In this document: in pieces, positions 1,607 through 58,121 of the stretch
Layout: every line of letters starts with the position of its first letter
Position numbering within the stretch: position 1 is the stretch's first letter
Assembly (NCBI GenBank): GCA_016219645.1
Contig: JACRLR010000010.1
Location: forward strand, 64,552 to 128,551
DNA from: Nitrospirota bacterium
Lineage (GTDB): Bacteria; Nitrospirota; Nitrospiria; Nitrospirales; Nitrospiraceae
Direction of reading: 5' to 3'
Length of the DNA stretch: 64,000 nt
Notes under the pieces: model-generated
The model's input: only the letters and a program-made list of their open reading frames with translations
Told to the model about the DNA's origin: nothing
Databases searched by the model: none
Translations under genes and position numbers: made by a program

Positions 1607-1703
1607 GGAACAATACCCGTGTCGGCCTTTTGCTCCCGGAACGCGCACGATCGGAATGTGCTCGTTCGACGGCCGCAGTCAGACCGAACACGCGTACTGT
1701 TCC
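1607..1703. repeat. Family A palindromic element
   Basis: Arms beginning GGAACAATACCCGTGT and ending ACGCGTACTGTTCC are complementary apart from scattered mismatches. They enclose the core seen elsewhere in the window (CCGGAACGCGCACGATCGG followed by TGTGCTCGTTCGACGGCC). The length (97 bp) and sequence closely match the innermost units at 40097-40193 and 45014-45110. Confidence 0.75.
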
Positions 1704-1745
1704 AGGTAAGGACAAACGAGCTTGGGGGAGTTGTTTACTTTGTTT

Positions 1746-1844
1746 GAGGGATGGTCCGGATGAGTCCCCCACTGCGCGCGTCCAACGAGGGCTTTCTGAA
1801 GCCGCGCGTTGCGCGAGCACGGGGGGCTCACCGGACCGTCCCTC
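1746..1844. repeat. Family A palindromic element upstream of threonine aldolase
   Basis: The left arm GAGGGATGGTCCGGATGAGT pairs with the right arm, which ends CACCGGACCGTCCCTC. Between them is the conserved core GCGCGCGTCCAACGAG...GCGCGTTGCGCGAGCAC. It sits in the leader of the downstream gene, ending about 50 bases before its start codon. Confidence 0.8.
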
Positions 1845-1894
1845 CCCGTGCTAGAATGCGCCGCCACAATCTTGCGGCGTCCCAAAGGACCACT

Positions 1895-2926
1895 ATGATC
1901 GACCTGCGAAGCGATACGGTCACGAAACCGACAGACGCGATGCGAGAGGCCATGGCACGCGCAGATGTGGGAGACGATGTCTACGGAGAAGATCCCACTG
2001 TCAACCGGCTCCAAGACATGACTGCGGCAATGTTTGGGAAGAAGGCCGCTCTCTTCGTCCCCTCTGGCACGATGGCGAATCAACTTGCGATTCGCCTCCA
2101 TAGTCAACCGGGCCAAGAGGTGATCGTCGAAAGCAGGGCCCATATCGTGCGGTATGAACAGGGAGCCGCTGGAGCACTGGCAGGAGTCCAACTCCACTGG
2201 GTCGCAGGCGATCGAGGGCTCATCTCAGCCGAGCAGATCGAGGCAGCCGTCCGCCCCAAAGATCCACATACTATTCAAACAGCGCTGATCTGCCTTGAGA
2301 GCACTCACAATAGCGGCGGGGGGACCATATATCCTCTGGCAACAATCGAGCGGATTCGTGCTGTGGCTGCAACGCATGGCATTCCCATGCATTTGGACGG
2401 GGCACGGCTGTTCAATGCGATCGCCGCAACGACCCTGCCACCGGCGTCCTATGCCCAGCATTTTGACACGCTTTCGGTGTGTCTCTCAAAGGGACTGGGG
2501 GCGCCGGTGGGCTCGCTGCTGATGATGAATGATCTGACGCTCCTCGACAAAGCCAAACGGCTGCGCCGCATGTATGGCGGCTCGATGCGTCAATCCGGTA
2601 TCCTCGCCGCTGCCGGCATCTATGCCCTGGAACACCATATCGAGCGATTGAAAGTGGACCATGACCACGCCAAGCGGTTGGCACGAGGGCTGCAAAGTGT
2701 TCCGACGGTCAGAATCAACCCCCACGATGTCGATACGAACATCGTGATCTTCGATGTCATCGGTCACCGCCTTGCTCCCCCGGCAATTGTGGCGGCGCTG
2801 AAGAAAGAAGGGGTCTTGATCAATGCTCTCGGTGGCAACAGTTTTCGTGCCGTGACGCATCTGGATATCTCTAGTGCCATGACTGATGAAGCCTGCGCGA
2901 TCCTTTCCCGTGTTCTGGCAAACTGA
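1895..2926 (+). CDS. ltaE: Low-specificity L-threonine aldolase
   Basis: This PLP enzyme of fold type I cleaves L-threonine (and allo-threonine) to glycine and acetaldehyde. The start was placed at the ATG that opens MIDLRSDTVTKPT, the canonical N-terminus of the family; reading frame upstream of it runs through a palindromic repeat and is not coding. The 343 residues are a normal length. VCLSKGLGAPVGSLL contains the PLP lysine at about residue 203, and MHLDGARLFNA is the cofactor-binding stretch. It stands alone between two transcriptionally unrelated groups. Confidence 0.93.
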   Translation: MIDLRSDTVTKPTDAMREAMARADVGDDVYGEDPTVNRLQDMTAAMFGKKAALFVPSGTMANQLAIRLHSQPGQEVIVESRAHIVRYEQGAAGALAGVQLHWVAGDRGLISAEQIEAAVRPKDPHTIQTALICLESTHNSGGGTIYPLATIERIRAVAATHGIPMHLDGARLFNAIAATTLPPASYAQHFDTLSVCLSKGLGAPVGSLLMMNDLTLLDKAKRLRRMYGGSMRQSGILAAAGIYALEHHIERLKVDHDHAKRLARGLQSVPTVRINPHDVDTNIVIFDVIGHRLAPPAIVAALKKEGVLINALGGNSFRAVTHLDISSAMTDEACAILSRVLAN

Positions 2927-2985
2927 AATCACGACTCATTGACAGCTCTCCCCCTGAAATCTAGAATGCCAGTCATGGGGTACCT

Positions 2986-3213
2986 ATGCCGTTGACCGTT
3001 GTATCGTTCAAACACATCACCCAAATCCTAGGGGTCACTGATTCTCTTGGACTGAACCGGGAATGGGTCGAAATTCCCTTGTCCCCACAAAGCCCGGGCG
3101 CCGTCAGACGATTGACTAACGGTAAGCTGGAAATTGTCGTCGATGCGGACCAACCCTTCGAGGATTGGCTGCAATCGCTCCCGCGACACATTCAGCTCGC
3201 ACAGGGAGCTTAA
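2986..3213 (+). CDS. Small conserved-looking protein, unknown function
   Basis: A 75-residue acidic to neutral soluble protein without a recognised motif. It ends one base before the start of the nucleotidyltransferase gene, which suggests translational coupling and argues that the ORF is real. No signal peptide or membrane segment is visible. It may be a partner of the downstream nucleotidyltransferase, but nothing in its sequence proves it. Confidence 0.6.
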   Translation: MPLTVVSFKHITQILGVTDSLGLNREWVEIPLSPQSPGAVRRLTNGKLEIVVDADQPFEDWLQSLPRHIQLAQGA

Positions 3214-3214
3214 G

Positions 3215-4000
3215 ATGGACAGCCCTACGGTTCAACCTGTTCCAACATCAGAAGAATTGAAGGCGGAACTCCTGGCGATTCCAGAACCGCCGGAACAACC
3301 GGACCCAATAGATGAGCCGGGTTTTGAAGAGCTTGTCGCAATCGCCGTGCGCCATGTCCGTGGTCGTCGTGGAGGGGACCTTGTCAGTGTAATCCTGGTA
3401 GGATCCAGCGTTCGCCGCGCGATCACGGCCCACAGCGATATTGATCTCATTGCCCTGGTCAAAGGACAGGCCGACAGCCACGAAATCGTCCGTGTTTCCG
3501 ACCGCCTGGCTGACATCCGATATCGTGGACATCAAGAGTTTGAGGAGGATCTCCCCTACTCGCCACGTCTCCCGTCTCTCCTGCGCAAAGCTCGGATCCT
3601 GTTCGATCACGACAATATCGGCGCGAAGTTGATCGAACGGGCCAATCACCGGTTTCGACAGGGACCGCCCCCCGTCACCATCAACGAACAGATTCGGATG
3701 AAGGCAGAGTGTTTCCATTGGCTGGGAAAGGCGCGAGATCTGGCAGACAAGCCGGCAACCGCTCAGTACATACTCTCGATATTTTTTGATGACTTTATCA
3801 ACTCGTTCTTTCGGCTTCGGGGCTTCTGGCTGACTGCTCCGATTGAGGCGCCGAAGTTTATGGCCTCCCGCGATGCGGAGTTAGGTGACCTTGCTGGACG
3901 CTTCCTAACTGCCGCAACCTTGCCGGAACGGCTCAACTTTGGCCGCGACCTCGCCGATATTCTCTTTAAGGACGTCCCGAATCCTGCCCGAATCGACTGA
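3215..4000 (+). CDS. Nucleotidyltransferase-domain protein (pol-beta fold)
   Basis: The ATG at 3215 is preceded by AGGGAG and follows the upstream stop by one base. In the 261-residue product, GSSVRR at about 63-68 and SDIDL with Asp75 and Asp77 form the GS-x10-DxD active-site pattern of stand-alone nucleotidyltransferases. A helical C-terminal region of about 130 residues (FHWLGKARDLADKPATAQY) resembles HEPN or substrate-binding helices of kanamycin-nucleotidyltransferase-like proteins. Substrate is unknown. With the 75-residue gene it forms a two-gene unit closed by a terminator at 4030-4051. Confidence 0.8.
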   Translation: MDSPTVQPVPTSEELKAELLAIPEPPEQPDPIDEPGFEELVAIAVRHVRGRRGGDLVSVILVGSSVRRAITAHSDIDLIALVKGQADSHEIVRVSDRLADIRYRGHQEFEEDLPYSPRLPSLLRKARILFDHDNIGAKLIERANHRFRQGPPPVTINEQIRMKAECFHWLGKARDLADKPATAQYILSIFFDDFINSFFRLRGFWLTAPIEAPKFMASRDAELGDLAGRFLTAATLPERLNFGRDLADILFKDVPNPARID

Positions 4001-4029
4001 CAGGCGAGGCAGAGCAGCGCTTAAACCTT

Positions 4030-4051
4030 CCGCCTAACCCCGGCGGTTTTT
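4030..4051 (+). terminator. Rho-independent terminator after the nucleotidyltransferase gene
   Basis: CCGCC (4030-4034) pairs with GGCGG (4042-4046), a GC-only stem that is followed directly by TTTTT. It lies 30 bases past the stop codon and before the gnd ribosome-binding site. Confidence 0.75.
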
Positions 4052-4078
4052 CTAGCATCCTGCTAGCAAGGAGTCACA

Positions 4079-4972
4079 ATGGAAATCGGATTCATCGGGC
4101 TTGGGAAAATGGGCATGAATATGGTGACCCGATTGCAACGCGACCGGCACCGGGTGGTGGTCTACGATCGGTCGGCCGATTTGATCAAACAGGCCGAAGC
4201 CGTCGGCTGTGTCGGCGCGACCTCGCTCGCAGATCTCGTCGGCCAGCTCAAGGCTCCACGCGCGGTCTGGATCATGGTCCCCTCCGGTGTAGCGACGGAA
4301 GAGACCGTTCAAGCCGTTGCGGCGCTGCTCCAGGCTGGCGACACGGTGATCGATGGCGGCAATACCAGATTCCACGACGATGTTCGACGGGCCGCTGACC
4401 TCCAGAAACAGCAGATTCACTATGTCGATGCCGGCACCAGCGGCGGCATTTGGGGACTGACAGTCGGCTATTGCCTCATGGTCGGGGGCGACGAGGCGCC
4501 CGTGAAGCAGCTTGCGCCGATCTTCACGACGTTGGCGCCGGAACAGGGGTGGGCCCATGTCGGCAAGGTTGGCGCAGGCCACTATGTAAAAATGGTCCAT
4601 AATGGAATTGAGTACAGCATGATGCAAGGGTATGCAGAAGGCTTCGAGCTCATGGCGAAGAGCGACTATCAGCTGAATCTTGCAAAGATTGCAGATCTTT
4701 GGATGCACGGCAGCGTCGTCCGATCCTGGCTCTTGGAGCTGGCAGCCGGCGCCTTGAAAGAGGATCCAAAGCTGGAGCAATTGAGAGGCTATGTACAAGA
4801 TTCCGGCGAGGGGCGCTGGATGATCGCCGACGCGATCGAGAAGGATGTGCCGGTCCCGACACTTGCGACTGCCCTCTTCACTCGTTTCCGATCTCGGCAG
4901 AGCGAATCATTTGCGGAAAAAATGCTGGCCGCGTTGCGGAAGGCATTCGGCGGCCACGCAGTCCGACGGTAA
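4079..4972 (+). CDS. gnd: 6-phosphogluconate dehydrogenase, decarboxylating, short NAD-type
   Basis: Oxidatively decarboxylates 6-phosphogluconate to ribulose 5-phosphate in the oxidative pentose phosphate pathway. The 297-residue length matches the short GndA/YqeC class rather than the 470-residue enzyme. GLGKMGMNM at about 8-16 is the Rossmann nucleotide loop, GTSGGIWG is the substrate loop, and KMVHNGIEY carries the catalytic lysine. AAGGAG precedes the ATG. The zwf start follows after 15 bases, so the two oxidative steps are co-transcribed; no lactonase gene lies between them. Confidence 0.93.
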   Translation: MEIGFIGLGKMGMNMVTRLQRDRHRVVVYDRSADLIKQAEAVGCVGATSLADLVGQLKAPRAVWIMVPSGVATEETVQAVAALLQAGDTVIDGGNTRFHDDVRRAADLQKQQIHYVDAGTSGGIWGLTVGYCLMVGGDEAPVKQLAPIFTTLAPEQGWAHVGKVGAGHYVKMVHNGIEYSMMQGYAEGFELMAKSDYQLNLAKIADLWMHGSVVRSWLLELAAGALKEDPKLEQLRGYVQDSGEGRWMIADAIEKDVPVPTLATALFTRFRSRQSESFAEKMLAALRKAFGGHAVRR

Positions 4973-4986
4973 GGGCTCAGCCTTCT

Positions 4987-6531: not shown

Positions 6532-6540
6532 CCACACAGG

Positions 6541-6855: not shown

Positions 6856-6857
6856 GA

Positions 6858-11806: not shown

Positions 11807-11902
11807 GAGGGGTAGCCTGGGTGATCCTCTAGTGCGCGTGTCGAACGAGCACCTTCTGAGTGTGCGCGTTCCGCGAGCACGAGGACGACTAGGCTACCCC
11901 TC
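11807..11902. repeat. Family A palindromic element between convergent genes
   Basis: GAGGGGTAGCCTGGGTGATC pairs with the arm that ends CTAGGCTACCCCTC, enclosing the GTGTCGAACGAGCAC...GCGTTCCGCGAGCAC core. It is followed by TTTT and lies between the stop codons of the convergent ompH-like and rhodanese genes, so it could serve as a bidirectional terminator. Confidence 0.8.
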
Positions 11903-11911
11903 TTTTCCCGC

Positions 11912-12280
11912 TCAACGTTCAATGGGATAGCCTGCATCCCGCCAGCCTTTGATTCCCCCATCCATTGACACCACATTGATGTAACCCATACGCTGGAGTG
12001 CGTCTGCCGCTAATATGGACCGGTAGCCACCTCCGCAATACAGGAGAATGGCCTCGTCCTTATTAGGGATATATGTTTCCACATCACGCTCAATAATCCC
12101 TTTCCCCAGGTGTCGAGCCCCCTTCGCATGGTCCTTTGCATACTCGGTATCCTCCCGCACATCGAGAAAATGCTGTATGTCACCCCGATCGAGCCTGGTC
12201 TTTGCCTCTGCGACCGTACACTCCTTGACCCCTGCGCGTGCCTCGTTCACCAACTTCAAAAAGCCTGGATTATGTTTCAT
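11912..12280 (-). CDS. Rhodanese-domain sulfurtransferase
   Basis: The start is the ATG at 12280, preceded by AAAGGAGC; the longer reading frame upstream comes from a repeat and is rejected. The 122-residue single rhodanese domain has FLDVREDTEY near the N-terminus and the active loop LLYCGGGYRS, whose Cys carries the persulfide, followed by the DGGIKGWRDAGYP terminus. It is cytoplasmic and may move sulfane sulfur for thiolation or detoxification. No functional partner is adjacent. Confidence 0.92.
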   Translation of the reverse strand: MKHNPGFLKLVNEARAGVKECTVAEAKTRLDRGDIQHFLDVREDTEYAKDHAKGARHLGKGIIERDVETYIPNKDEAILLYCGGGYRSILAADALQRMGYINVVSMDGGIKGWRDAGYPIER

Positions 12281-12322: not shown

Positions 12323-12469
12323 GTTGTAAAAGCCCGCCAGCTTCATGGGAAGGTTAAGGCTGAGGCTAAGGTTGAGCAAACAAGAACCTGTTCGACACTT
12401 AACCTTAACCTCGACCTAAGCCTTCTTCACTCGCTGCGGCTGTGCTGGACAGGTTTTTCCATCATCCTC
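12323..12469. repeat. Family B element with hexamer-period hairpin
   Basis: Outer segments TAAAAGCCCGCCAGC and GCTGGACAGGTTTTTCCATC frame a low-complexity palindrome (12350-12424) built from AAGGTT/GAGGCT hexamers and their complements (CTTAACCTTAACCTCGACCT). The same design recurs at 21691-21845. Confidence 0.75.
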
Positions 12470-16274: not shown

Positions 16275-16387
16275 AGCTGGTCTATCTAGTCTGTTTGGTC
16301 TATTTGGTTCGTCTTGTTTATTTGGTTGAATTAAACCAACGAAATAAACGAAACAAACCAAATAAACCAGTCAACCAGCCAGACCAG
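16275..16387. repeat. Family C pentamer-period hairpin between tRNA genes
   Basis: The left half repeats TGGTC/TATTT/GGTTC-type pentamers and the right half is their approximate complement (AACCAACGAAATAAACGAAAC). The long imperfect hairpin separates tRNA-Ser(GCT) from tRNA-Phe and could form a processing or termination structure. Confidence 0.7.
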
Positions 16388-21691: not shown

Positions 21692-21845
21692 CACGACGCT
21701 GAAAAAGTCCGCCAGCGTGATTGCAAGGTTAAGGCTGAGGCTAAGGTTGAGCAAACACGAACCTCTTCGACGCTTAACCTTAACCTCGACCTACACCTAC
21801 TTCATACGTTGCGGCCTTGCTGAACGGCCTTTTTGAGCGTCCTGC
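21691..21845. repeat. Family B element, best-preserved copy
   Basis: The outer arms GCACGACGCTGAAAAAGTCC and GGCCTTTTTGAGCGTCCTGC are near-complementary. Inside, 21727-21800 repeats AAGGTT/AAGGCT/GAGGCT hexamers followed by CTTAACCTTAACCTCGACCT complements. The element fills the space between the convergent HTH and RlmI-like genes, suggesting a terminator-like role. Confidence 0.8.
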
Positions 21846-34287: not shown

Positions 34288-34403
34288 GCAGGATGCTCAA
34301 AAAGACTGATCAGCAAGGCCGCAGCGAATGAAGCAGGTTGAGGTCGAGGTTCAGGTTGAGCGAAGATCTGACTCTCCTCTCTCAACCTCAGCCTTAACCT
34401 TCC
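34288..34403. repeat. Family B element (one outer arm) upstream of a small gene
   Basis: The outer arm GCAGGATGCTCAAAAAGACT is followed by GCAAGGCCGC and a hexamer-period hairpin (AGGTTGAGGTCGAGGTTCAG / CTCAACCTCAGCCTTAACCTT). The second outer arm is missing; the element ends in TTCCCTGAAGGAGG, so the ribosome-binding site of the 34420 gene lies right at its edge. Confidence 0.65.
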
Positions 34404-34419
34404 CTGAAGGAGGATACCC

Positions 34420-38220: not shown

Positions 38221-38700
38221 ATGGTTATGAACAGGGCAGCAGGCTTTAGGATCACCGTGACAGTGGGGCTGCTAGCTATTTGCCTAGGCGCCGTCAGTCC
38301 CCTCGGCACTTGGGCCGCCGAACCAGCCAAGAAGGAGATGAAAGGGAAAAAGCAGCCGCAAGTACGCAAGAATTTGTCCGCCCCAGAAACCGCTGGTCTA
38401 AAATTCTCCACGGCAGAAACTGCGGGAAAAGCTCCATCCTGTTTTGGTGAGGCACCAACGCTTGAGAAAGTCACGCCGGACGAAGGGAAAGCCGGAGATA
38501 AAGTCGTCATTACGGGGAGCAACTTCGGCCAGGCTGCATGTATGCGGGGCATCTCTTTCGGTCCAGGCCACCCGGCTCAGTTTCAACAGACCAATAACAG
38601 CATCACGACCACTGTGCCAAGCGGCGTCAAGAAAGGCCTGGTGCTTCTCACCGTCACCACGGCTTCGGGAGAAAACTCAAAGACGTTCCTCATGAAATAG
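38221..38700 (+). CDS. Secreted IPT/TIG-domain protein
   Basis: A 159-residue exported protein. The signal peptide (about 1-33, FRITVTVGLLAICLGAVSPLG) is followed by a Lys/Gln-rich linker and a single IPT/TIG immunoglobulin-like domain at about 75-159: TLEKVTPDEGKAGDKVVITGSNFG, then PAQFQQTNNSITTTVPSGVKKG. Such domains occur in surface and matrix proteins. It begins about 70 bases after acs and may be co-transcribed, although a functional link is not evident. Confidence 0.82.
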   Translation: MVMNRAAGFRITVTVGLLAICLGAVSPLGTWAAEPAKKEMKGKKQPQVRKNLSAPETAGLKFSTAETAGKAPSCFGEAPTLEKVTPDEGKAGDKVVITGSNFGQAACMRGISFGPGHPAQFQQTNNSITTTVPSGVKKGLVLLTVTTASGENSKTFLMK

Positions 38701-38706
38701 AGGAGA

Positions 38707-38801
38707 GAGGGCAGACTAGATGCCTCCCGTGCTCGTGCAACGCGCGGTCTGGGAAGACCCTCGTTGGACACGCGCAATAGGAGACCATCTAGTCCGCCCT
38801 C
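38707..38801. repeat. Family A palindromic element (inverted core)
   Basis: GAGGGCAGACTAGATGCCTC pairs with GACCATCTAGTCCGCCCTC. The core is in the opposite orientation to that at 1746 (GTGCTCGTGCAACGCGCGG ... CTCGTTGGACACGCGC). It starts seven bases after the IPT/TIG gene's stop codon. Confidence 0.8.
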
Positions 38802-38960
38802 AAGGAAGAAGGTGAAGAGCGGTGGTCGCTCGATGCGCGCAGTGAAGAGCAACCTTGGCCGCTCCTTTGGAGAGCGGTAGAGGATTGGAATGTGCTCGTT
38901 CGACGCGCGCAATCGAGGATCGACCAGGTTACCCTTGAGGGGGGGGGGGAATAGGAGGTA
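38802..38960. repeat. Partial family A units ending in an 11-G run
   Basis: Half-elements are joined here: GGTCGCTCGATGCGCGCAGTGAAGAGC, then GGAATGTGCTCGTTCGACGCGCGC. The CAAGG and CCTTG ends are complementary. A homopolymer of eleven G residues lies at 38939-38949, followed by GGAGG. Confidence 0.6.
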
Positions 38961-39900: not shown

Positions 39901-40308
39901 AGGGGGTGGCCTGGACGATCCTCGATTGCACGCAACTTTCTCACCCGCCCACCCGAGCGCGCCAAGACGCGCTCTTTACCCAAGCGAGCACCTTCTGATT
40001 CCCAAACTTTCCAAGAGAGAGTAGGCAGATTGTTCTTTACTGCGCGCATCGAGCGACAGAACTGTTCCCTCCAAGCTTGCTCGCTTGCCCTTGTCTGGAA
40101 CGGTACCCGTGTCAGGCCTGACTGCGGCCGTCGAACGAGCACATTCCAATCGTGCGCGTTCCGGGAGCAAACGGTCGACACGGGTACCGTTCCGCCCGTT
40201 TATCGTGGGGGCTCTGCGAGCAAGAAGAACGGTCTGCCTACTCCCTCGCATCGTTCTGAGGCCACGCGCTTTGCGCGAGCACAGGGGACTCACCGGGTCA
40301 CCCCCCCC
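39901..40308. repeat. Three-level nested family A palindrome
   Basis: The outer arms (GGGGGTGGCCTGGACGATCC at 39902; CTCACCGGGTCACCCCCCCC ending 40308) enclose a middle palindrome at 40021-40241 (arms GTAGGCAGATTGTTCTT and AAGAACGGTCTGCCTAC). The middle palindrome in turn encloses an inner 97-base palindrome at 40097-40193 (arms GGAACGGTACCCGTGTC and GACACGGGTACCGTTCC). Each level has its own copy of the GCGCG core flanks, so units appear to have inserted into the cores of older units. Confidence 0.8.
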
Positions 40309-44081: not shown

Positions 44082-44900
44082 TTGAACAGAACAACGCTCG
44101 TTGCCACATTCATTGCGGTAACTCTGATTGGACCCCCTACCTCATTCTTCGCAGAAGCGAGCGGGAGATTTACCTTAGGCTATCCCGGTGGATCATGGAT
44201 TGGCCACATGTTCTTCGGAACGACAAGCTGCTACGCTCAGACTACGGATGCCGATACGGCTGTTCCCGAAACCACCACCGCCCCCACCGCTCCCACTACC
44301 CCCGAGAGTTCCAGCTCTGCCGGAATCCTTCTGATCCTCCTGCTTCTGGGAGTTGCGGCACTGGTTTATTTCCTCAAAATACAACGACCTTCCCTCCCAG
44401 ACTTTTCCGGGATTACAGGTCGCGACCCATCCATCGACAATCTGCCGGCAAGGCGGTCCGGTACCACCAGGCAGAAACTGTCAGCCGATAGCATCACTTC
44501 CATTGATAAAGCAGCCTTCCAACAACTCCTGACCGACGTTCAACGGGCCTGGAGCACACAGGACCTGACCGAATTGCGGCAGTTCGTCACGCCGGAGATG
44601 CTGAACTATTTCAGCGCCGCCCTGGCCGATAATACCAGTCAAGACATCCGGAACCATGTGGAGGATGTCGTGCTCCTCCGTGCGGAGATCCTGGAAGCCT
44701 GGACTGAACAGGCAACGCAGTACGTGACAGCGGGACTTCGCTGGAGTGCCCGCGACTATAACGTATCCCTGACGAAGCAGCGCGGTGAACCAGGCTATAT
44801 TGTCGAAGGCAGCGAGGAGAAGCCGACCGAATCCGGCGAAGCCTGGACCTTCATGCGATCCCCAGATGGGAAATGGCTGCTCTCAGCGATTCAGCAGTAG
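44082..44900 (+). CDS. Tim44-like domain membrane protein
   Basis: The TTG at 44082 follows AAGGAACT and gives 272 residues. A signal-like segment at the N-terminus (about 5-27), a Thr/Ala/Pro linker, a membrane helix (about 80-100, GILLILLLLGVAALVYFL), then a soluble C-terminal domain with DKAAFQQLLTDVQRAWSTQDL and LRQFVTPEMLNYFSAALAD. This is the bacterial Tim44/MRPL45 family, which binds membranes or precursor proteins. The translocase link is not demonstrated in bacteria. It is divergent from the RCC1 gene. Confidence 0.83.
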   Translation: MNRTTLVATFIAVTLIGPPTSFFAEASGRFTLGYPGGSWIGHMFFGTTSCYAQTTDADTAVPETTTAPTAPTTPESSSSAGILLILLLLGVAALVYFLKIQRPSLPDFSGITGRDPSIDNLPARRSGTTRQKLSADSITSIDKAAFQQLLTDVQRAWSTQDLTELRQFVTPEMLNYFSAALADNTSQDIRNHVEDVVLLRAEILEAWTEQATQYVTAGLRWSARDYNVSLTKQRGEPGYIVEGSEEKPTESGEAWTFMRSPDGKWLLSAIQQ

Positions 44901-44903
44901 GAA

Positions 44904-45250
44904 GGGATGGGGCCTGATCATCTTCTGTGCTCGCGCAACGCGCGGCCTCAGAATGATGCGAAGGAGTAGGCAGACCGTTCTTCTTGCTCGCAGAGCCCCC
45001 ACGATAAACGGGCGGAACGGTACCCGTGTCGACCGTTTGCTCCCGGAACGCGCACGATCGGAATGTGCTCGTTCGACGGCCGCAGTCAGGCCTGACACGG
45101 GTACCGTTCCAGACAAGGGCAAGCGAGCAAGCTTGGAGGGAACAGTTCTGTCGCTCGATGCGCGCAGTGAAGAACAATCTGCCTACTCCTTCTGGGAGAG
45201 TCGAAGAATCAGAAGGCCCTCGTTGGACGCGCGCAGTGGAAACCACACCA
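44904..45250. repeat. Nested family A palindromes, inverted near-copy of the 39.9-40.3 kb array
   Basis: The middle unit at 44966-45186 is 221 bases, the same length as 40021-40241, and is its reverse complement with few differences; the inner unit 45014-45110 is 97 bases as well. The similarity extends beyond the arms, for example AGAATGATGCG...CGCGCGG against ATCGTTCTGAGG. The outer arms are not complementary here, so this copy lacks a complete outer level. Confidence 0.8.
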
Positions 45251-45275
45251 GCCGCCTCGCTGGATGCAGGTGAAA

Positions 45276-45365
45276 ACTCAAGTTCCGCCTCGTTCAACGG
45301 CCGCACGTAGACCAACATGGGTGCCCTTCCAAGAAGACAAACGAGCAAGCTTGGAGGGAGCATTA
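45276..45365. repeat. Partial family A unit
   Basis: GCCTCGTTCAACGGCCGC and AGACAAACGAGCAAGCTTGGAGGGA repeat pieces of the nested arrays (compare CAAGCGAGCAAGCTTGGAGGGA at 45120). No complete pair of arms is present. Confidence 0.55.
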
Positions 45366-45475
45366 TAGAAAATTCTCGTCCGATGCGCGCAACTGCGCCC
45401 CCACCCGATAGTTGCTTTCCAAATAAATTAAGAATACTGTTCCCGAAATTCGCCTTCAATGCTCGGGAATAGATC

Positions 45476-46270
45476 ATGGCAGTTCACACACTCATGTCCA
45501 TGCCTATCTTGGCGTTATGTAGGACACAAAAAGCTATAGCAGCGGTTGTTTTTGCAGGATTTGTAACAGGCACCTTCGTTCCCTACCTCGTGTTCGGTTC
45601 TGGGCCGGATGATCCTAGCTGTGGACGATTTGACTACAGCCGGCAGTGTGATCTCTCGCCGACTCTTTTCCTGATTGTGGATGTAGTTATAGCCGTTCTC
45701 CTGGCGATACTCTTTCACTATTTGTCAAATCGAAATCAGAAACGACTAGACCAGATCATCGCATCTCAGGAAGCCCTGAGGAATAGACGGATGGATTATG
45801 CGGCCCAGCATCTGAAGCAGCTCTTTCAGCTCACCCTTTTCACGATGAGCGTCACGAAACGATCCCTCGCTCACTATAACCTAACAGTAGGGTTACCAGA
45901 TGATGAGAAACCACTGTGGATGCGGTCTGTGACACTCTCTGAGCTCAGGAGAGATGAAGCCAAGTTGGGGCGTGTGTTGCAATCAGTGCGGAGTCTCCTC
46001 ACTGCCGCAAATGACGTGCTCGACCCTGACATGGTGAATAGAGTGGATGGGGTGTGTAACTATCTTGGCGAAATATCTGTTGAGCAAAATGCGGACGGTA
46101 CGATGGAGTTCCCGAAATATGATGTGTGCAGAATGAAGGTCAATTATTTGATCGAGTTGCTTCAAACCTATTCCCGTGAGACTCGTTCGTTCAAAGACAT
46201 TGTTGAAGAACCATATGGAAATTCTCCCGTTGAGTCTGAACCTGATCTGGCAGAGGAGGTGAAACACTAA
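45476..46270 (+). CDS. Membrane-anchored helical protein of unknown function
   Basis: A 264-residue protein with two hydrophobic segments (about 20-42 and 63-83, LFLIVDVVIAVLLAILFHYL). The intervening loop has two Cys (CGRF, RQCD) that could pair outside the membrane. The long cytoplasmic part is helical (NQKRLDQIIASQEALRNRRMDYAA) and charged. Visible base composition is more AT-rich than the window average. The next gene starts directly after its stop codon, so the two form an operon; I recognise no domain. Confidence 0.7.
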   Translation: MAVHTLMSMPILALCRTQKAIAAVVFAGFVTGTFVPYLVFGSGPDDPSCGRFDYSRQCDLSPTLFLIVDVVIAVLLAILFHYLSNRNQKRLDQIIASQEALRNRRMDYAAQHLKQLFQLTLFTMSVTKRSLAHYNLTVGLPDDEKPLWMRSVTLSELRRDEAKLGRVLQSVRSLLTAANDVLDPDMVNRVDGVCNYLGEISVEQNADGTMEFPKYDVCRMKVNYLIELLQTYSRETRSFKDIVEEPYGNSPVESEPDLAEEVKH

Positions 46271-46777
46271 ATGGCACCACGTGATGACAACGAGCGAAAT
46301 CTAAGCGGTCGTGATTATCGAAAGGCATTCGGTCAATTTTCATCCAATAAAACTCAAAGAATTTCGACATTGAAACCTGTCGAGGTTCAACTGGATGCGC
46401 AAGCAGATGCTGGCGGAGGAGTCCACACGATAGATTTCAACAAAGGCGATATCATCATTAAACAGTCAGGCATGTACCTTATCATCGCAGGTCCGCAGGT
46501 CGGTAAGGTGAGGGGTGCCACTCCCCGGTGGATCGATCTTTGGCTGAGGGTGAATAACATCGATGTACCGAATTCGAACATACGGGCTGTCCTAATCGAT
46601 CCCGAGGAAAAGACTGTTGCCATCATGAATTCTGTGTTGCCTCTCAATAGAGGCGACACACTGAATATCGTGATGGCAGCGGAGACAATCGAGGAAGGCA
46701 TGGGGCTCGAGGCGATCGCACCGGATGGTGAACCTACAATCCCGAGTATTATTGTCACAGTCGTACAACTGGATTGA
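46271..46777 (+). CDS. Small beta-rich protein, possibly C1q/TNF-like fold
   Basis: A 168-residue soluble protein. The middle resembles a jelly roll of C1q/BclA type: FNKGDIIIKQSGMYLIIAGP, WIDLWLRVNNIDVPNSNI and LPLNRGDTLNIVMAAE. No signal peptide is seen. It is encoded immediately after a membrane-anchored protein, so the pair may act together. The fold assignment rests on pattern only. Confidence 0.55.
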   Translation: MAPRDDNERNLSGRDYRKAFGQFSSNKTQRISTLKPVEVQLDAQADAGGGVHTIDFNKGDIIIKQSGMYLIIAGPQVGKVRGATPRWIDLWLRVNNIDVPNSNIRAVLIDPEEKTVAIMNSVLPLNRGDTLNIVMAAETIEEGMGLEAIAPDGEPTIPSIIVTVVQLD

Positions 46778-46871
46778 AGGTAACAGTGCTGGCGGTTGTT
46801 TACTTGCGCCGGTTGGCGCTGAGAAAGGTTCCAGGAACCGTTCTCCTACACGCTCGCTTGTGATCTTTCAG

Positions 46872-47125
46872 GAATGGGGGCTGATTGATCTTCCACTGCG
46901 CGCGTCCAACGAATGCCGGTTCATCTGGTCTATCTTGTCTATCTGGTTTGTCTGGTTGATCGGGCCGGAAACTCATACGGAAGAACCAGGCGGACCAGAA
47001 AGACTCGCCAGTCAGACAGACGAACCCGGGGGAGTGGTCAGATTGCCCTTTACTGCGCGCATCGGACGAGCACAGTTTCACCGTGCGCGTTCTGCGAGCA
47101 AGAAGGGCACCTGGCCGCTTCTCCC
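46872..47125. repeat. Family A units with an inserted family C hairpin
   Basis: GGAATGGGGGCTGATTGATC starts a family A left half that stops at TCCAACGAATG. There a pentamer hairpin (46919-47022, TCATCTGGTCTATCTTG.../...AACCAGGCGGACCAGAAAGA) begins. A complete family A palindrome follows at 47028-47125 (GGGGGAGTGGTCAGATTGCC / CACCTGGCCGCTTCTCCC). The left arm is the same sequence as the arm at 58025. Confidence 0.7.
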
Positions 47126-47133: not shown

Positions 47134-47871
47134 CTACCTCCACCCGTCCCCGTTCGTCCCGCCTCCGAAGCCTCCGAAGTTCCCACCGAAGCCGCCCTGG
47201 CCAGTCCCCCAATACTCACCCTTTTGAATTCGTTTGTAGGGATGCCGGAGGTCCGGTCTGCTAATCCACCAGAAAAATGAGAATCCCCCGACAGCGGTAA
47301 ACAGGGCAAGCCAGAACCCCAAACCTTTCGAATGGCCCTTCGAGATGTCGCCGACACGCACATCCTGCGCGGGAGAGGCGAGAGCCACCACGGTGCGATA
47401 GAGCCCTTCGCCGAAATGTCCCAACTCAATCGACGGCTGTAAGGACTCGCGCCCGACTTGATTCATCACCGTGGGAGTAATCACCGGCAACATCTGCCTT
47501 CCCAGCGTGATCGCAGCCTGTCGTTCCTGCACCGCAACCAGCACCAGCATGCCATGTTCTTGTTGTGTCGATCCGATCCCCCACTTTTCATATATTGCCG
47601 TCGCATACTCATTGGCCGACCGGAATGGCTTGATACTCGGCACCGTGACCACCACCATCTCGACGCCGGTCTTTCGTTCAAGATCCTGACAGACGGAACG
47701 AATGCGCTCTTTCCAATCCCCATCGATGGCCCCTGCGTGATCGCTCACATACCCCCGTGGTTCAGGCAACGGAATCGCGGGCCGTTCGTAGGACACCGCA
47801 TGGGCTACGCCCTGGAACAGAATAAGGAAAAGTACCACAGCCATAGCATTGAACTTTGTCATCGCTGTCAC
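47134..47871 (-). CDS. TPM-domain membrane protein
   Basis: A 245-residue protein with signal peptide (VLFLILFQGVAHAV), a TPM domain at about 35-165 (YVSDHAGAIDGDWKERIRSVC, EMVVVTVPSIKPF, HGMLVLVAVQERQAAITLG), a membrane helix near 185-205, and a Gly-rich tail (GGFGGNFGGFGGG). TPM proteins occur in photosystem repair and membrane quality control; the bacterial role is not settled. It overlaps the next gene of the strand by four bases (ATGA). Confidence 0.88.
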   Translation of the reverse strand: MTAMTKFNAMAVVLFLILFQGVAHAVSYERPAIPLPEPRGYVSDHAGAIDGDWKERIRSVCQDLERKTGVEMVVVTVPSIKPFRSANEYATAIYEKWGIGSTQQEHGMLVLVAVQERQAAITLGRQMLPVITPTVMNQVGRESLQPSIELGHFGEGLYRTVVALASPAQDVRVGDISKGHSKGLGFWLALFTAVGGFSFFWWISRPDLRHPYKRIQKGEYWGTGQGGFGGNFGGFGGGTNGDGWR

Positions 47872-49917: not shown

Positions 49918-50030
49918 GAAAGGTTTAGGTTGAGGTCGAGGTTGAGCCTGAAGGTACAAGAGAGTTAGCAGAACTCTCCTCTTTCTCGACCTTAACCTTA
50001 ACCTTAGCCTCAACCTTCTTACTCATTTCC
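49918..50030. repeat. Family B-type hexamer hairpin
   Basis: GGTTTAGGTTGAGGTCGAGG and CTCGACCTTAACCTTAACCT are complementary halves of a degenerate hexamer palindrome with the loop AGTTAGCAGAACTCT. It occupies the gap between the FAD enzyme gene and the 3' end of the PLD gene. Confidence 0.7.
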
Positions 50031-52368: not shown

Positions 52369-52467
52369 GAGGGGAGCGGTCACACAGTCCTTTTTGCTCG
52401 CAGAGCCCCACGGTGAAGCAGTGGTCGCTCGATGCGCGCAGTAGAGGACAATCTGACCACTCCCCTC
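52369..52467. repeat. Family A palindromic element
   Basis: GAGGGGAGCGGTCACACAGT pairs with CTGACCACTCCCCTC. The core has GCTCGCAGAGCCCC and GGTCGCTCGATGCGCGCAGT. Similar arms occur at 47028. Confidence 0.75.
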
Positions 52468-54133: not shown

Positions 54134-54382
54134 ATGGCACGGCGGAACCTTGCTTGTGTGAGAGTATCCGCATTACTTGTGACTCCGATGATTAAATCAC
54201 CCGCAGAAGAAAAATCCTCAGATGTTCCCACGCAGGTTTTCGAGGAATTTCTATATGCCCTTGAGAAAGCCAACGTTTCGACCGAATTGGTCACACGGCT
54301 TCGCAAAACTCTAATGGAAGATCGCGTCCTTACCGAACATGCACTGAAGGTAGCCGTCCTTGGACAGGAGACATTGCCTTGA
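54134..54382 (+). CDS. Small protein coupled to the ABC ATPase
   Basis: An 82-residue frame; the internal ATG at 54188 would give 64 residues and better hydrophilicity. The predicted product is helical and soluble (FEEFLYALEKANVSTELVTRLRKTLM). Its stop codon overlaps the ATPase start (TTGA), so translation is likely to be coupled. This supports a partner or regulator role for the ATPase. I find no recognised domain. Confidence 0.65.
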   Translation: MARRNLACVRVSALLVTPMIKSPAEEKSSDVPTQVFEEFLYALEKANVSTELVTRLRKTLMEDRVLTEHALKVAVLGQETLP

Positions 54383-56835
54383 TACTGGTGGATTCCATAA
54401 CAATCAAAGAGTTTCGCGGTATCCGCGAACTAACCCTGGAATTTAAGCAGAAAAATTTTGCCATCTGTGGCCCCAACGGTACGGGCAAGAGTGGCGTGGT
54501 TGATGCTCTTGAATTCGCCCTGACTGGAAACGTATCGCGTCTTTCCGGGGAGGGGAAAGGCGAAGTCTCCCTCAAGCAACACGCACCCCACGTAGACATG
54601 CGGGACAACCCAGACAAGGCACGTGTTACGGTCAAGGTTACAATCCCCAAGCTGAATAAGACAGTCACTGTCGAGCGAAGTCTGAAGAATCCAGCTGTTG
54701 CACAAGTGACGCCAAACGATGCCGATGTAATCGAAATACTCGATCAAGTGAAGTCTCATCCCGAGATCGCGCTTTCCCGCCGTGAGATAATTCGATATGT
54801 GTTAGCGACTCCCGGCAAACGCGCTGAGGAGGTCCAGGCGCTCCTCCATCTCGATCAAGTTGAGCGAGTCCGAGTAGTTTTACAAAAGGTCGCAAATAGT
54901 TGCGAGAAGCAGTTAGCTCCTCTCGCCACGGCAGTCACTCAAGCCCGAGAAAACCTATTGCGTGCAACAGGTATATCCGACGTGAAAACGGAGCGATTGC
55001 TTGCCGAGGCGAACACACAACGCACTATTATTGGGCTCCCCGCGCTTGTAGACCTGACTGACTCAACATCTCTCAAGGACGGAATGGCAACGCCAAGCTT
55101 GGCACAACCCCAACATATTCCCAAGGCTCAAGCCCTCGCTGATATTGGAGCCGCCCGCCAGACTCTCACTGAGATTACAAGCGCTTCAACTACTGCAAGT
55201 GCCGCTCAAGCACTGGATGCGCTTAACGCTCTTGCCAGCGATCCAGCCATCTCAGCGAGTGTGGAAAGAGAGAGTTTCTATGTAATCGGGATGGAGATGA
55301 TTGAAGCTGCAGCGTGTCCGTTCTGCGATATCGCATGGGATCTCGTCGATCTCAAGAAGCACATTCAAGCCAAGCTAGATCATTTGAGAGCGATATCTGA
55401 CAAACGCAAGAAAATCGAGAAGATGATCGCCCCTCTGATCACATCCCTTCGGAAAGCTCATTCTGCCATGAACAACTTGACTGGACACGCCGCCACTGCG
55501 ACACCGCCAGTGGTCATTGAAGAAGTCATCTCCTATGGAACAAGTTGCAGAACTGCCATCGATAAGTTGACATCCTTCCTGCCAGTGAATGAAACGATTA
55601 CGGCTCTGAATAGTATGTTGATGGTGCCCACGGGGGCTTTCGAAGCCATCGATAGACTCGACCAAGTAGTCGCTGCCCTACCTGAGCCGACTAAGCAAGA
55701 CGCCGCTAGAGACTGGCTTTCGGTCGCGCAAGAGCGGCTTGAATTCTGGCGTGATGCAACGCGAAAGAATAAGGCCGCGACAGAACAAGCTCAGAGGGCA
55801 CGGCAGGTGTCTGACATATACGCTACCACGAGTGACAAGGTACTTGCGGGAATCTATGAGGCTGTCGAGAAAGATTTTGCCTCACTTTATCGTTATGTCA
55901 ACCGCGAAGATGAAAACACGTTCAACGCTCAACTCGTCCCATCTATGGGAAAGCTTGGTTTCGGTGTGGACTTCTACGGCCGTGGTTTCTTCCCGCCAGG
56001 CGCTTATCATAGTGAGGGTCACCAAGACAGTATGGGCTTGTGCTTATATCTCGCGTTGATGAGACACCTCCAAGGTACCGGGTTCACTCTTGCCGTGCTC
56101 GACGACATTCTAATGTCCGTGGATGCAGGTCACCGACGTGAAGTCTGTGCCCTCCTGAAGAAGGAGTTCCCGAACACACAGTTCATCATGACAACGCATG
56201 ACCCAATCTGGTTGCGCCACATGAAGACGGAGGGAATCATTGATGGACGGTCAGCACTACAATTCAGAAATTGGAGCGTAGATCAGGGACCAACTAGATG
56301 GGACGCGCGAGACGTATGGAAAGAGATCGAGGACTACCTCAATAATAATGACGTACGAGGTGCGGCATCTCTCCTGAGGCACTATCTTGAATACGAATCA
56401 GCTGAATTGTGTCACAGACTGCGCGCGCCCGTTGAGTTCCGTGGCGATGCTCAGTATCAGCTCGGCGAGCTTCTACCCGCAGCGATCAAACGCATGCGTA
56501 CACTCTTTGCGCGTATGAAGGAGTCGGCAAACTCATGGAACCAACAGGAGCTTGTAGACCAACTTGCCGCACGCGATACCAAATTTATCAAACTCGCCAC
56601 AAGCTCGAACGCTGAGCAATGGCAGGTAAACGTGGCAGTGCATTACAATTCTTGGGACAATCTGTGCAAGAAAGACTTCGAGCCCGTAGTAGAAGCGGTC
56701 CGCCAGCTACTCAGTGCATTCACTTGTTCAGATTGTGACGAGTACCTCCGCGTGTCACCTGACCGCGAAACTCCTGAATCGATTCGATGCGAATGCGGTA
56801 AAACAACCTTCAATCTTCAGAAAAAAGTCCCGTAG
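54379..56835 (+). CDS. Rad50/RecF-like ABC ATPase with zinc hook and C-terminal Cys cluster
   Basis: An 818-residue SMC/Rad50-like ATPase, starting with TTG in the overlap. Walker A is GPNGTGKS at 31-38. A CPFC (Cys313, Cys316) resembles a zinc hook within short helical arms. The ABC signature region is SEGHQDSMG near 545, Walker B is AVLDDIL with Asp575/Asp576, and the H-loop is TTHDP near 607. The last 40 residues have CSDC...RCEC, a zinc-ribbon-like module. It resembles ATPases of phage-defence systems such as RloC in layout, but no nuclease effector domain is evident. Confidence 0.85.
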   Translation: MILVDSITIKEFRGIRELTLEFKQKNFAICGPNGTGKSGVVDALEFALTGNVSRLSGEGKGEVSLKQHAPHVDMRDNPDKARVTVKVTIPKLNKTVTVERSLKNPAVAQVTPNDADVIEILDQVKSHPEIALSRREIIRYVLATPGKRAEEVQALLHLDQVERVRVVLQKVANSCEKQLAPLATAVTQARENLLRATGISDVKTERLLAEANTQRTIIGLPALVDLTDSTSLKDGMATPSLAQPQHIPKAQALADIGAARQTLTEITSASTTASAAQALDALNALASDPAISASVERESFYVIGMEMIEAAACPFCDIAWDLVDLKKHIQAKLDHLRAISDKRKKIEKMIAPLITSLRKAHSAMNNLTGHAATATPPVVIEEVISYGTSCRTAIDKLTSFLPVNETITALNSMLMVPTGAFEAIDRLDQVVAALPEPTKQDAARDWLSVAQERLEFWRDATRKNKAATEQAQRARQVSDIYATTSDKVLAGIYEAVEKDFASLYRYVNREDENTFNAQLVPSMGKLGFGVDFYGRGFFPPGAYHSEGHQDSMGLCLYLALMRHLQGTGFTLAVLDDILMSVDAGHRREVCALLKKEFPNTQFIMTTHDPIWLRHMKTEGIIDGRSALQFRNWSVDQGPTRWDARDVWKEIEDYLNNNDVRGAASLLRHYLEYESAELCHRLRAPVEFRGDAQYQLGELLPAAIKRMRTLFARMKESANSWNQQELVDQLAARDTKFIKLATSSNAEQWQVNVAVHYNSWDNLCKKDFEPVVEAVRQLLSAFTCSDCDEYLRVSPDRETPESIRCECGKTTFNLQKKVP

Positions 56836-57008
56836 AAATGGAACGGTTATCAGGCCCCATTTCGTGGTGCGCGGGAGGAGAAAACAGGGAGATTCTGAAT
56901 TTTCAGATGAAAGCTACTGAGCTCGTTTCTTAATACCCTGCACGCTCGCACGAGAGCGGACAGACTCTCCCTCACCGCGCCCACCCTAGCCTGCTCTTCC
57001 CTGTTCCC

Positions 57009-57515
57009 TCAAGTCTTGAATCCGATGCGGCGGGATTTTGGTGTCGGCTCCGCCATCAATTCACGAATGGCTTCGAAGACGACACGAAACTGGCCGTCAT
57101 ACTTCTTCTCCAGATCTGTGAGGCGTCGGGCAAGAACTTTGTTCGAACTAATCATCTCACGCAGACGAACAAAGGTGCGCATGATGGCGATGTTCACTTC
57201 GATGGCGCGCTTGCTATGCAACACGCTGGACAACATTGCGACACCCTGCTCGGTAAAGGCATAGGGCGCATGCCTTCTGCCACCCCACTTCGAACTTGAT
57301 ATCGCAATTTGCGATTTCAAGTTTTCAAACTCCGCTTTTGTTAACTGGAACATGAAATCACCGGGAAAACGATCCTCGTTTCTTTTGACGGCTTCGTTCA
57401 ATCTTCCCACTGTGACGCCGTAGAGCTGAGCCAAATCGCTATCCAGCATCACGTTATGGCCACGGATCAGAAGGATTGTCTGTTCAATTCGTTCGCGAGG
57501 TACCAGAGCGCTCAT
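57009..57515 (-). CDS. ORF6N-domain DNA-binding protein
   Basis: A 168-residue protein with an N-terminal ORF6N (KilA-N related) domain, about 1-110: [38 protein letters not shown], then [23 protein letters not shown]. The C-terminus is a coiled coil ([21 protein letters not shown]). These occur in phages and free-standing accessory loci; here there are no other phage genes. GAGG precedes the ATG. Confidence 0.9.
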
Positions 57516-57805
57516 ATTTCCTCTCCGCTACGCTCAATCCACCGCGAGGATGAAAGTAGACACTCTGTCCTTTCTATAACATCAACATACAGAAAACAAA
57601 ATGGAAGCATTATGCGTGAGAGGTGCCTGTCAAATGCTGCAATAATGAGCAGATGACTGAGGTCTCATATGAGAGCGGCAGGGACTATGACGTATAACTG
57701 GAGGGGTTGATCTGGTCTTCTTTGCTGTCCGAACGGGCTACCCATATGAACAGAGTGAGGGGCAGAACTGAATGGATAGTGCCAGATAGTTTCCCATCGC
57801 CTCAG
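57516..57805. other. Spacer without visible gene
   Basis: The interval between the ORF6N start and the family A repeats contains no credible frame. TTGTCC-like and TATAAC-like hexamers near 57560-57590 could hold the ORF6N promoter, but none stands out. Confidence 0.4.
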
Positions 57806-57996
57806 AAGAGGGCTCCCTAGATGGTCTCTCACTGCGCGTGTCCAACGAATGCTGGTTCATCTGGTCTATCTCGTCAATCTGGTTGGTCGAACCTGAAATT
57901 CATCCGAAAAACCAGACAGACCAGAAGACCAGCCCACCAGATAGACAAACCCAGGCGCGTTCCGCGAGCAAGAAGGGCACCTGGCCGCTCCTCCCC
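57806..57996. repeat. Family A unit interrupted by a family C hairpin
   Basis: GGCTCCCTAGATGGTCTCTC and ACTGCGCGTGTCCAACGAATG begin a family A unit. A pentamer hairpin (57853-57952, TGGTTCATCTGGTCTATCTC) then starts at the same core position as in the 46.9 kb copy. The unit resumes with GCGCGTTCCGCGAGCAAGAA. Confidence 0.7.
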
Positions 57997-58024
57997 ATCC
58001 TTCGAAACTCGCTCGCTATCTTCA

Positions 58025-58121
58025 GGGGTGGGGCTGATTGATCTTCCACTGCGCGCGTCCAACGAGGGGAGTCCACGACCGCGCGTTGCGCGAGCACAGA
58101 AGATCGATCAGCCCCCACCCC
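58025..58121. repeat. Family A palindrome, near-perfect arms
   Basis: GGGGTGGGGCTGATTGATCT and AGATCGATCAGCCCCCACCCC are complementary with only a couple of mismatches. The core between them is GCGCGCGTCCAACGAGGGGA...GCGCGTTGCGCGAGCAC. It sits 10 bases before the cupin stop codon and could terminate that transcript. Confidence 0.85.

What the first reader, a model, noticed from the sequence alone, without database searches (positions are those of the whole stretch)
1607..58121. A family of about 97-bp intergenic palindromes with variable arms and a conserved core
Copies at 1607, 1746, 11807, 38707, 40097, 45014, 47028, 52369 and 58025 share the design: complementary arms of 20-25 bases that differ between copies, around a core like GCGCGTCCAACGAG...GCGCGTTGCGCGAGCAC. 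They lie almost exclusively between genes. Compensatory arm changes imply selection on pairing. They resemble REP or MITE-like elements, but I do not recognise the family.
Basis: partly seen in the sequence, partly recalled or inferred. Interest (0 to 1): 0.75.

Follow-up and report, generated by a model that had tools for sequence, protein, structure and literature searches.

The report
Stop-codon hairpin repeats of Nitrospiraceae
A Nitrospira-like bacterium and its relatives carry many copies of a long DNA/RNA hairpin whose stem letters change freely as long as they still pair, and which often sits, nearly always the same way round, just behind the stop codons of genes, which points to a structure-only signal at the ends of messages.

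Summary
The nine copies are real, structured and intergenic, and belong to a family of at least 150 in the 3.65-Mb genome. R1, a model built from eight, hits 37 of 37 same-family genomes (58 of 62) and almost nothing else. All 23 outer-stem pairs change on both sides among 129 copies. At sucC|sucD, 22 orthologues keep the hairpin; 13 of 31 predicted pairs show kept double changes.
New: copies sit behind stop codons (39 of 114 gene 3' ends within 15 nt, 10.3 expected; 2 of 116 5' ends). Within 30 nt of a stop, 50 of 51 face one way, 17 of 17 in 29 other species. At orthologous stops species carry different arm types or unrelated hairpins. 40 of 133 copies have an orphan half-element nearby.
Three mobility enzymes tested are not consistently present. 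No tag or target-duplication signal, no Rfam match.
Most likely a REP-like mobile repeat acting as an mRNA hairpin behind stops: position, orientation and pairing shown; function and mobilising enzyme inferred or unknown.

The parts
1607..1703 (-). full copy, GGAACRGTAC arm type
   Evidence: R1 90.6 bits; fold z -5.6
1746..1844 (+). full copy, GGTCCGGATGAGTCC arm type
   Evidence: R1 85.0 bits; fold z -7.8
11807..11902 (+). full copy, 9 nt behind the stop of a called minus-strand gene (11912-12280)
   Evidence: R1 80.8 bits; position
38706..38802 (-). full copy, 5 nt behind the stop of the TIG-domain gene 38221-38700; in relatives other arm types stand at the same stop
   Evidence: R1 92.9 bits; orthologues; Pfam TIG
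40097..40193 (+). full copy nested in the apex of a split host copy
   Evidence: R1 91.8 bits; host arms -37.8 kcal/mol
40014..40249 (+). split host element (left half about 40014-40056, right half about 40209-40249) around the 40097 copy
45014..45110 (-). full copy nested in a split host copy; lies in a 305-bp inverted duplication of the 40-kb cluster
   Evidence: R1 91.5 bits; duplication; host arms -43.8 kcal/mol
44960..45192 (-). split host element around the 45014 copy (approximate ends)
44904..44955 (-). orphan half of a further copy (GGGATGGGGCCTGATC arm type), 3 nt behind the stop (44898-44900) of the Tim44-domain gene
   Evidence: read from sequence; Pfam Tim44
45199..45420 (-). run of orphan half copies (three core halves) of different arm types
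   Evidence: read by eye; motif pairs
46872..46912 (+). orphan left half copy, followed by a TGGTCTATC-type hairpin
47028..47124 (+). full copy, 9 nt behind the stop of the minus-strand gene 47134-47871
   Evidence: R1 96.6 bits; orthologues
52370..52466 (-). full copy
   Evidence: R1 80.6 bits; fold z -7.8
57807..57994 (+). chimera: left half of one arm type, a TGGTCTATC-type hairpin in the apex, right half of another arm type
   Evidence: R1 34.4 bits; sequence
58025..58121 (+). full copy, 10 nt behind the stop of a called minus-strand gene ending at 58132
   Evidence: R1 85.0 bits; position

Best explanation
This is a Nitrospiraceae family of REP-like hairpin repeats. The unit is a 97-nt (mostly 92-102) imperfect palindrome: a near-invariant core of about 50 nt with a variable apex, and a 20-25-bp outer stem whose sequence is free as long as it pairs. 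SHOWN: the pairing constraint; recent copying (copies up to 98% alike at unrelated places); frequent placement directly behind stop codons (from overlapping the last codons to 11 nt behind) in one orientation; descent with kept structure at sucC|sucD; different arm types at orthologous stops. INFERRED: because the lock of position and strand concerns the end of a message, the element acts mainly as RNA, as a rigid hairpin just behind the stop codon that shields the 3' or intercistronic end from exonucleases, or slows termination and re-initiation, as reported for E. coli REPs within 15 nt of stops. It spreads as a non-autonomous copy by an enzyme not identified here, entering gene 3' ends and the apices of older copies. 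Deletions and recombination between nested copies then leave half copies and chimeras.
For: Stop adjacency: 39 of 114 gene 3'-end distances are <= 15 nt (overlaps of up to 19 nt with the called gene counted), 10.3 expected for uniform placement in the same gap, against 2 of 116 gene 5' ends. Orientation: of copies within 30 nt of a stop 50 of 51 face one way; of 3' ends farther off 29:34. Replicate, best-match loci of 29 other species: 39 copies, 0 genic, 17 of 36 3' ends <= 15 nt, 0 of 37 5' ends, 17 of 17 oriented, 7:12 farther off. Copies at least 88% identical to another copy already show 25:0 near stops. Covariation in 129 copies and in 22 sucC|sucD orthologues, 13 of 31 pairs with kept double changes. 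Copies with private arms (clusters of 1 or 2) are more often behind stops than those of the three big clusters (14 of 21 against 33 of 85, p = 0.028; clusters of 3-5, 3 of 8, left out) and lie in operons purS|purQ, sucC|sucD, pth|ychF and behind an ftsK-like gene. purS|purQ: sequence-unrelated long hairpins fill the same slot in other species. Excess of strong folds behind stops in relatives (14 of 124 with z < -4 in L136-152, against 13 of 295 in L154-200 and 2 of 99 in L203-215; my grouping of named loci by similarity).
Against: No expression data. 64 of 115 placed copies are not within 30 nt of a stop, and farther off there is no orientation bias, so many copies may do nothing. Young copies already show the lock, which fits targeted insertion as well as selection. 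6 of 30 species have no hairpin at purS|purQ (gap 26-40 nt), and the hairpins there are not all strong against dinucleotide shuffles (z -1.1 to -6.0, one decayed case +0.4). 6 of 30 loci have none of this family at sucC|sucD and one a remnant. The age argument rests on p = 0.028 and an arbitrary clustering cut. Gene ends come from a home-made gene finder.
Confidence: 0.5

Rival explanations
1. Purely selfish miniature element: a transposase or other recombinase recognises the hairpin (core as binding site, stem needed for the fold) and inserts it in one orientation at gene 3' ends or into hairpin apices. Host genes gain nothing; covariation reflects the needs of mobility.
For: Near-identical dispersed copies (97-98%); young copies near stops already 25:0 oriented; orphan half copies next to 40 of 133 copies, 10 with halves on both sides, of which 5 with strongly complementary arms; different arm types at orthologous stops.
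Against: No consistent enzyme among three tested: Y1_Tnp missing in 13 of 32 genus genomes, GIIM domain in 6 of 32, RVT_1 in 8 of 32, the last two absent from the own genome; several of these genomes are incomplete and other transposase families were not screened. No target duplication. Kept structure with double changes at sucC|sucD in 22 species goes beyond what mobility needs.
Confidence: 0.3
2. DNA-level sites: cruciforms or binding sites for gyrase, IHF-like or chromosome-organising proteins, placed where supercoiling collects behind genes.
For: Long stems can extrude; positions behind genes fit; E. coli REP/BIME precedents (recalled).
Against: A strict orientation relative to the gene within 30 nt of a stop (50 of 51) and none farther away (29:34) is hard to explain for a nearly symmetric DNA site.
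Confidence: 0.1
3. Intrinsic transcription terminators.
For: Hairpin behind stop codons.
Against: No T run: the gene-sense flank behind the hairpin is 62-84% A+G in its first ten positions, and the other flank is purine-rich on the same strand too; several copies lie between genes of one operon; paralogues of the Tim44 gene show conventional hairpin plus T-rich sequences instead (by eye).
Confidence: 0.05
4. Recombination sites of an attC-like or other site-specific system, with apex insertion as the normal reaction.
For: Nested apex insertions and exchange of halves.
Against: The conserved part is the middle, not the ends; none of the 12 half pairs 450-6,000 bases apart in held loci was recognised as a cassette, but the insides were not annotated; copies are dispersed.
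Confidence: 0.04
5. Chance or an assembly artefact.
For: None found.
Against: Fold z -5.4 to -8.0; family in 37 of 37 family members by separate assemblies.
Confidence: 0.01

Closest known systems
E. coli REP elements close to stop codons (Liang, Rudd and Deutscher 2015, not read; known here from passages of PMC12306157, and a reference-list entry)
   Same: Abundant extragenic palindromes, a share within 15 nt behind stop codons; ribosome stalling there is reported.
   Different: REPs are 20-40 bp (PMC3733652) and tagged; here 97 nt, no tag, hypervariable stem around a fixed core, 50 of 51 in one orientation at stops. 39 of 114 3'-end distances are within 15 nt here; PMC12306157 gives 446 of 4,072 E. 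coli REPs and cites 260 of 496 for the older set.
REPINs with RAYT transposases (PMC3116915, PMC2817692; passages read)
   Same: Non-autonomous, hairpin-forming, extragenic, compensatory changes reported, hundreds of copies.
   Different: In a REPIN the two outer ends are conserved and the spacer varies; here the reverse. REPIN doublets are described as randomly distributed in extragenic space. No standing RAYT partner here.
GTAG- and CGTC-tagged REP families (PMC3733652; passages read)
   Same: It reports REP dimers inserted within long palindromes in A. variabilis, H. neapolitanus and T. roseum, a precedent for palindrome in palindrome.
   Different: Tags not found here; the word Nitrospira does not occur in its main text.
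Rickettsia palindromic elements, ERIC and other MITE-like palindromes (recalled)
   Same: About 100-150 bp, palindromic, dispersed.
   Different: No target-duplication signal here, 1 of 133 copies overlapping a gene, orientation lock at stops.
Group IIC introns (recalled)
   Same: Enter DNA next to hairpins behind genes, in one orientation.
   Different: No intron match in Rfam; GIIM domain in 6 of 32 genomes and not in the own genome.

Membership tests
REP (tagged, RAYT-associated) | GTAG or CGTC tetranucleotide at one end | tested here: not met
   8 and 2 of 133 copies; no conserved tetranucleotide at either edge
REP (tagged, RAYT-associated) | cognate Y1 transposase gene flanked by the repeat | tested here: not met
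   The only Y1_Tnp gene found in the genome has no copy within 28 kb among the 150 listed and has another palindrome beside it; 13 of 32 genus genomes show no Y1_Tnp at E <= 0.001, 7 of the 19 good ones
REP-like repeat in the wide sense | high-copy extragenic palindrome | tested here: met
   At least 150 copies, 1 of 133 overlapping a gene by more than 30 nt
REPIN | two conserved inverted outer ends around a variable spacer | tested here: not met
   All 23 outer pairs vary, core nearly fixed
MITE of a DDE transposon | target-site duplication | tested here: not met
   Flanking direct repeats about as frequent as with swapped flanks; a repeated TCAGAAGG at some nested apex insertions is the only hint (by eye)
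MITE of a DDE transposon | autonomous parent with the same inverted ends | tested here: inconclusive
   12 pairs of complementary halves 450-6,000 bases apart in held loci, read as pairs of separate copies, insides not annotated; the rest of the genomes was not scanned for this
Intrinsic terminator | T run behind the hairpin | tested here: not met
   Purine-rich flanks on the gene-sense strand
Group IIC intron or its derivative | intron RNA and maturase | tested here: not met
   GIIM in 6 of 32 genomes, none in the own genome; no Rfam intron match
Known Rfam RNA family | match above gathering score | tested here: not met
   Only tRNAs in the window; four chance-like miRNA matches far below gathering score in three loci
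REP-like role at stop codons | changes ribosome or mRNA behaviour at the stop | not testable with these tools
   Needs expression data

The most novel reading that the evidence does not exclude
In this genus the few nucleotides behind certain stop codons are a standing slot for a long hairpin, selected for structure alone. Unrelated repeat families (this one and at least four others at purS|purQ) replace one another in it, and within this family whole palindromes are exchanged in place while both flanks stay, by insertion at the stop-proximal edge followed by loss of the older copy between direct repeats. That would be a sequence-free regulatory layer at translation ends, kept supplied by mobile hairpins.
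Probability: 0.3. Interest if true: 0.8.

Novelty: new variant of a known kind. Interest (0 to 1): 0.6.

Why it matters
If right, it turns an anonymous repeat into a testable rule: a hairpin of any sequence, but of fixed place and strand, belongs behind certain stop codons. It offers natural, many-times-repeated experiments on why REP-like repeats gather at stops, it gives a REP-like family with no standing RAYT to explain, and it warns annotators of Nitrospira genomes about 3' gene ends and about repeat-driven rearrangement.

Tried and rejected
Terminator reading: rejected for lack of T runs. RAYT: rejected as a standing partner. Group II introns and other reverse transcriptases: rejected as standing partners. 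Core as the mobile unit inside pre-existing palindromes: not favoured, since stem length is nearly constant (88-110 nt, one outlier of 52) and arms fall into shared types; a scan for core-less arms was not done. Target duplication: no signal. Autonomous version: none recognised in held loci. My first hand-written structure for the sucC alignment was out of register (53.4% of cells paired, slide +2 gave 68.0%); I replaced it by the RNAalifold prediction on the same alignment and did not run the shuffle and slide controls on that one. The measure 'hairpin starting within 15 nt behind the stop' did not differ much from shuffles in any of four sets (for example 0.604 against 0.628 in G000), since almost any sequence folds somehow; only the energy z-score separated the sets. 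For G000 that z result (80 of 298) is biased, as stretches were chosen for copies. Rows dropped before counts: of 208 cmsearch rows the best 150 were aligned; removing overlaps on the other strand left 133; 17 at stretch ends and 1 genic were left out of the position counts, leaving 115. TIG locus: 13 rows, of which L062 repeats L141; rows reaching less than residue 140 of the gene were dropped. Gene X: one of 22 (L232) did not reach the gene end. Phage and plasmid collections: no match to one copy and to the neighbouring E-type palindrome respectively. Papers: other searches gave listings of which I read only passages of the papers named.
Full report
OBSERVATION. The nine copies were read and folded. 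Each is one long hairpin, z -5.4 to -8.0, no shuffle as stable. A covariance model (R1) built from eight of them finds, in the window, the nine, their antisense images and otherwise only hits of E >= 0.19. In the own genome (G000, 3,648,813 bases) it lists 150 matches, E <= 2.6e-5; only 150 of 859 candidates were scored, and the stretches held copies beyond that list. In 494 kb (the window plus 40 stretches chosen around matches) 133 distinct copies were kept.

ANATOMY. In the orientation of the model: outer arm 20-25 nt, then a core like ACTGCGCGCGTCCAACGAGG, a variable apex, GCCGCGCGTTGCGCGAGCAC, and the complementary arm. Helix-to-helix length is 88-110 nt, most 92-102 (one outlier of 52). 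In 129 copies 93.2% of cells are paired, all 23 outer pairs have changes on both sides, and slid controls reach 48% at most (the alignment is fitted to the structure and copies are related). Without any alignment, own arms pair at -36.4 kcal/mol on average and swapped arms at -18.8 (132 copies). Left arms fall into 30 clusters at 17 of 22 identities: 62, 19, 16, 5, 3, 2, 2 and 23 single ones. [quoted passage not shown] On the gene-sense strand both flanks are purine-rich (62-84% A+G in the first ten positions behind the hairpin), with no T run.

POSITION AND ORIENTATION. A simple hexamer gene finder of my own gave 469 genes, 76% coding. One of 133 copies overlaps a gene by more than 30 nt; 17 lie at stretch ends; 115 could be placed between two genes. 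39 of 114 distances to gene 3' ends are <= 15 nt (small overlaps counted; 10.3 expected if each copy were placed uniformly in its own gap), against 2 of 116 distances to gene 5' ends. Of copies within 30 nt behind a stop, 50 have the model strand opposite to the gene and 1 the same (p = 5e-14); farther away it is 29 to 34. As an independent sample I took the loci around the best match of 29 other genus genomes: 39 copies, none genic, 17 of 36 3' ends <= 15 nt, 0 of 37 5' ends, 17:0 in orientation near stops and 7:12 farther away. Copies that are at least 88% identical to another copy, hence probably young, show 25:0 near stops, so the lock arises with or soon after insertion.

ORTHOLOGOUS SITES. 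(a) Behind the TIG-domain gene (window 38221-38700), 12 distinct loci (13 rows): 8 full copies by R1, of four arm types, and 4 decayed, halved or chimeric ones by eye. (b) Behind gene 47134-47871, 22 loci: R1 finds copies in 11 of the 20 fetched relatives with many different arms; by eye further loci hold halves or remnants, three (L216-L218) hold none, and one row (L232) is not the gene end. (c) Behind the Tim44-domain gene: several arm types in the orthologue group; a paralogue group has ordinary terminator-like hairpins (by eye). (d) Locus L097:15160 against the closest genome (G030): same stop side and same tail on the other side, but a different palindrome between them (by eye). (e) sucC|sucD (SucC above its NCBIfam cut-off; SucD cut by the stretch end and below it): R1 hits at the sucC end in 23 of 30 fetched loci, all 23 in the usual orientation, one further remnant, 6 without. 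22 of them aligned by sequence alone give 31 predicted pairs, 13 with kept double changes. (f) purS|purQ (both above cut-off): of 30 species, 7 carry this family (R1 in 6; L297 by eye), 6 a GTGATGGG-type hairpin, 5 a GCTGATGGC-type, 4 a GTGCTGAG-type, 2 a GAGGTTAAGG-type (one decayed), and 6 have gaps of 26-40 nt without one (class labels by eye). First pairs lie 0-7 nt behind the stop; z ranges from -1.1 to -6.0 where a hairpin was called, so several are not strong against shuffles. Pth and YchF are above their cut-offs; UvrA (cut by the stretch end) and FtsK are below the whole-protein cut-off.

NESTING AND MOSAICS. 40 of 133 copies have an orphan half core of the same strand within 130 nt, 10 of them on both sides, 5 with strongly complementary host arms (-30 to -44 kcal/mol). 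21 of 133 have some core motif on the other strand within 130 nt (full copies not excluded), so co-orientation is a tendency, not a law. The window cluster 44.9-45.4 kb holds a copy inside a split copy inside further halves. Chimeras with unlike halves occur at window 57807-57994 and elsewhere. This fits insertion into apices and at the stop-proximal edge, then deletion between direct repeats; that order of events is inference.

DISTRIBUTION. 32 of 32 genus genomes, 5 of 5 other genera of the family sampled (one genome each), and two weak single hits in another family of the order. In a phylum-wide draw, 58 of 245 genomes, all in the same family (one of them with a single match at E 9.6e-4); four listed family members lack it.

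PARTNERS. Y1_Tnp: one gene in G000 with no listed copy near it; 13 of 32 genus genomes have none at E <= 0.001, 7 of the 19 good ones (the control rings in 5 of 14 named genomes). GIIM: 6 of 32. RVT_1: 8 of 32; neither in G000. Other transposase families were not screened.

LITERATURE. Searches for Nitrospira with palindromic or intergenic repeats, MITE, or REP turned up no description (open-licence papers only; most listed papers not opened). Passages of PMC12306157 report E. coli REPs within 15 nt of stops, cite ribosome stalling there, and give only counts for Nitrospira moscoviensis. Passages of PMC3733652 report REP dimers inside longer palindromes. Passages of PMC3116915 describe REPINs with conserved ends and compensatory changes in the spacer. 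Passages of PMC2817692 and PMC6006769 were also read. Liang et al. 2015 itself was not read.

JUDGEMENT. Shown: family, covariation, stop adjacency, orientation lock, different arm types at orthologous stops, nesting. Inferred: action as mRNA hairpin (0.5), with a purely selfish targeted element as the main rival (0.3). It is REP-like in habit but fails the tests for membership in the tagged, RAYT-linked REPs and in REPINs; hence new variant of a known kind.

Noticed in passing
L293-L322, gap behind purS: At purS|purQ four sequence-unrelated long hairpins made of degenerate short repeats stand in the place of the described family in other species, starting 0-7 nt behind the stop.
   Followed up: partly
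L031:1940-2065: A different, longer palindrome lies beside the only Y1 transposase gene found in the genome; a similar edge (GCAGGATGCTGAAAAAG) also stands directly behind stop codons and by eye hosts copies of the described family.
   Followed up: partly
window 16296-16369, 46916-47025, 57855-57950: TGGTCTATCTGG-type hairpins, alone or inserted in the apex of the described element.
   Followed up: no
window 12325-12447, 21700-21822, 34288-34409: Another dispersed repeat of about 120 bp, 75-86% alike.
   Followed up: no
window 39980-40284 and 44925-45226: 305-bp inverted duplication, 94% identical, carrying nested copies.
   Followed up: partly
window 31-123, 49927-50016, 61362-61423: Hairpins built of ACGTGAAACG- and AGGTTGAGG-like degenerate repeats, resembling kinds seen behind purS in relatives.
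   Followed up: no
window 44893-47102 against L136: The closest relative lacks this 2.2-kb stretch with two ORFs without Pfam match and the composite repeats; by eye the breakpoints lie at hairpin remnants.
   Followed up: no
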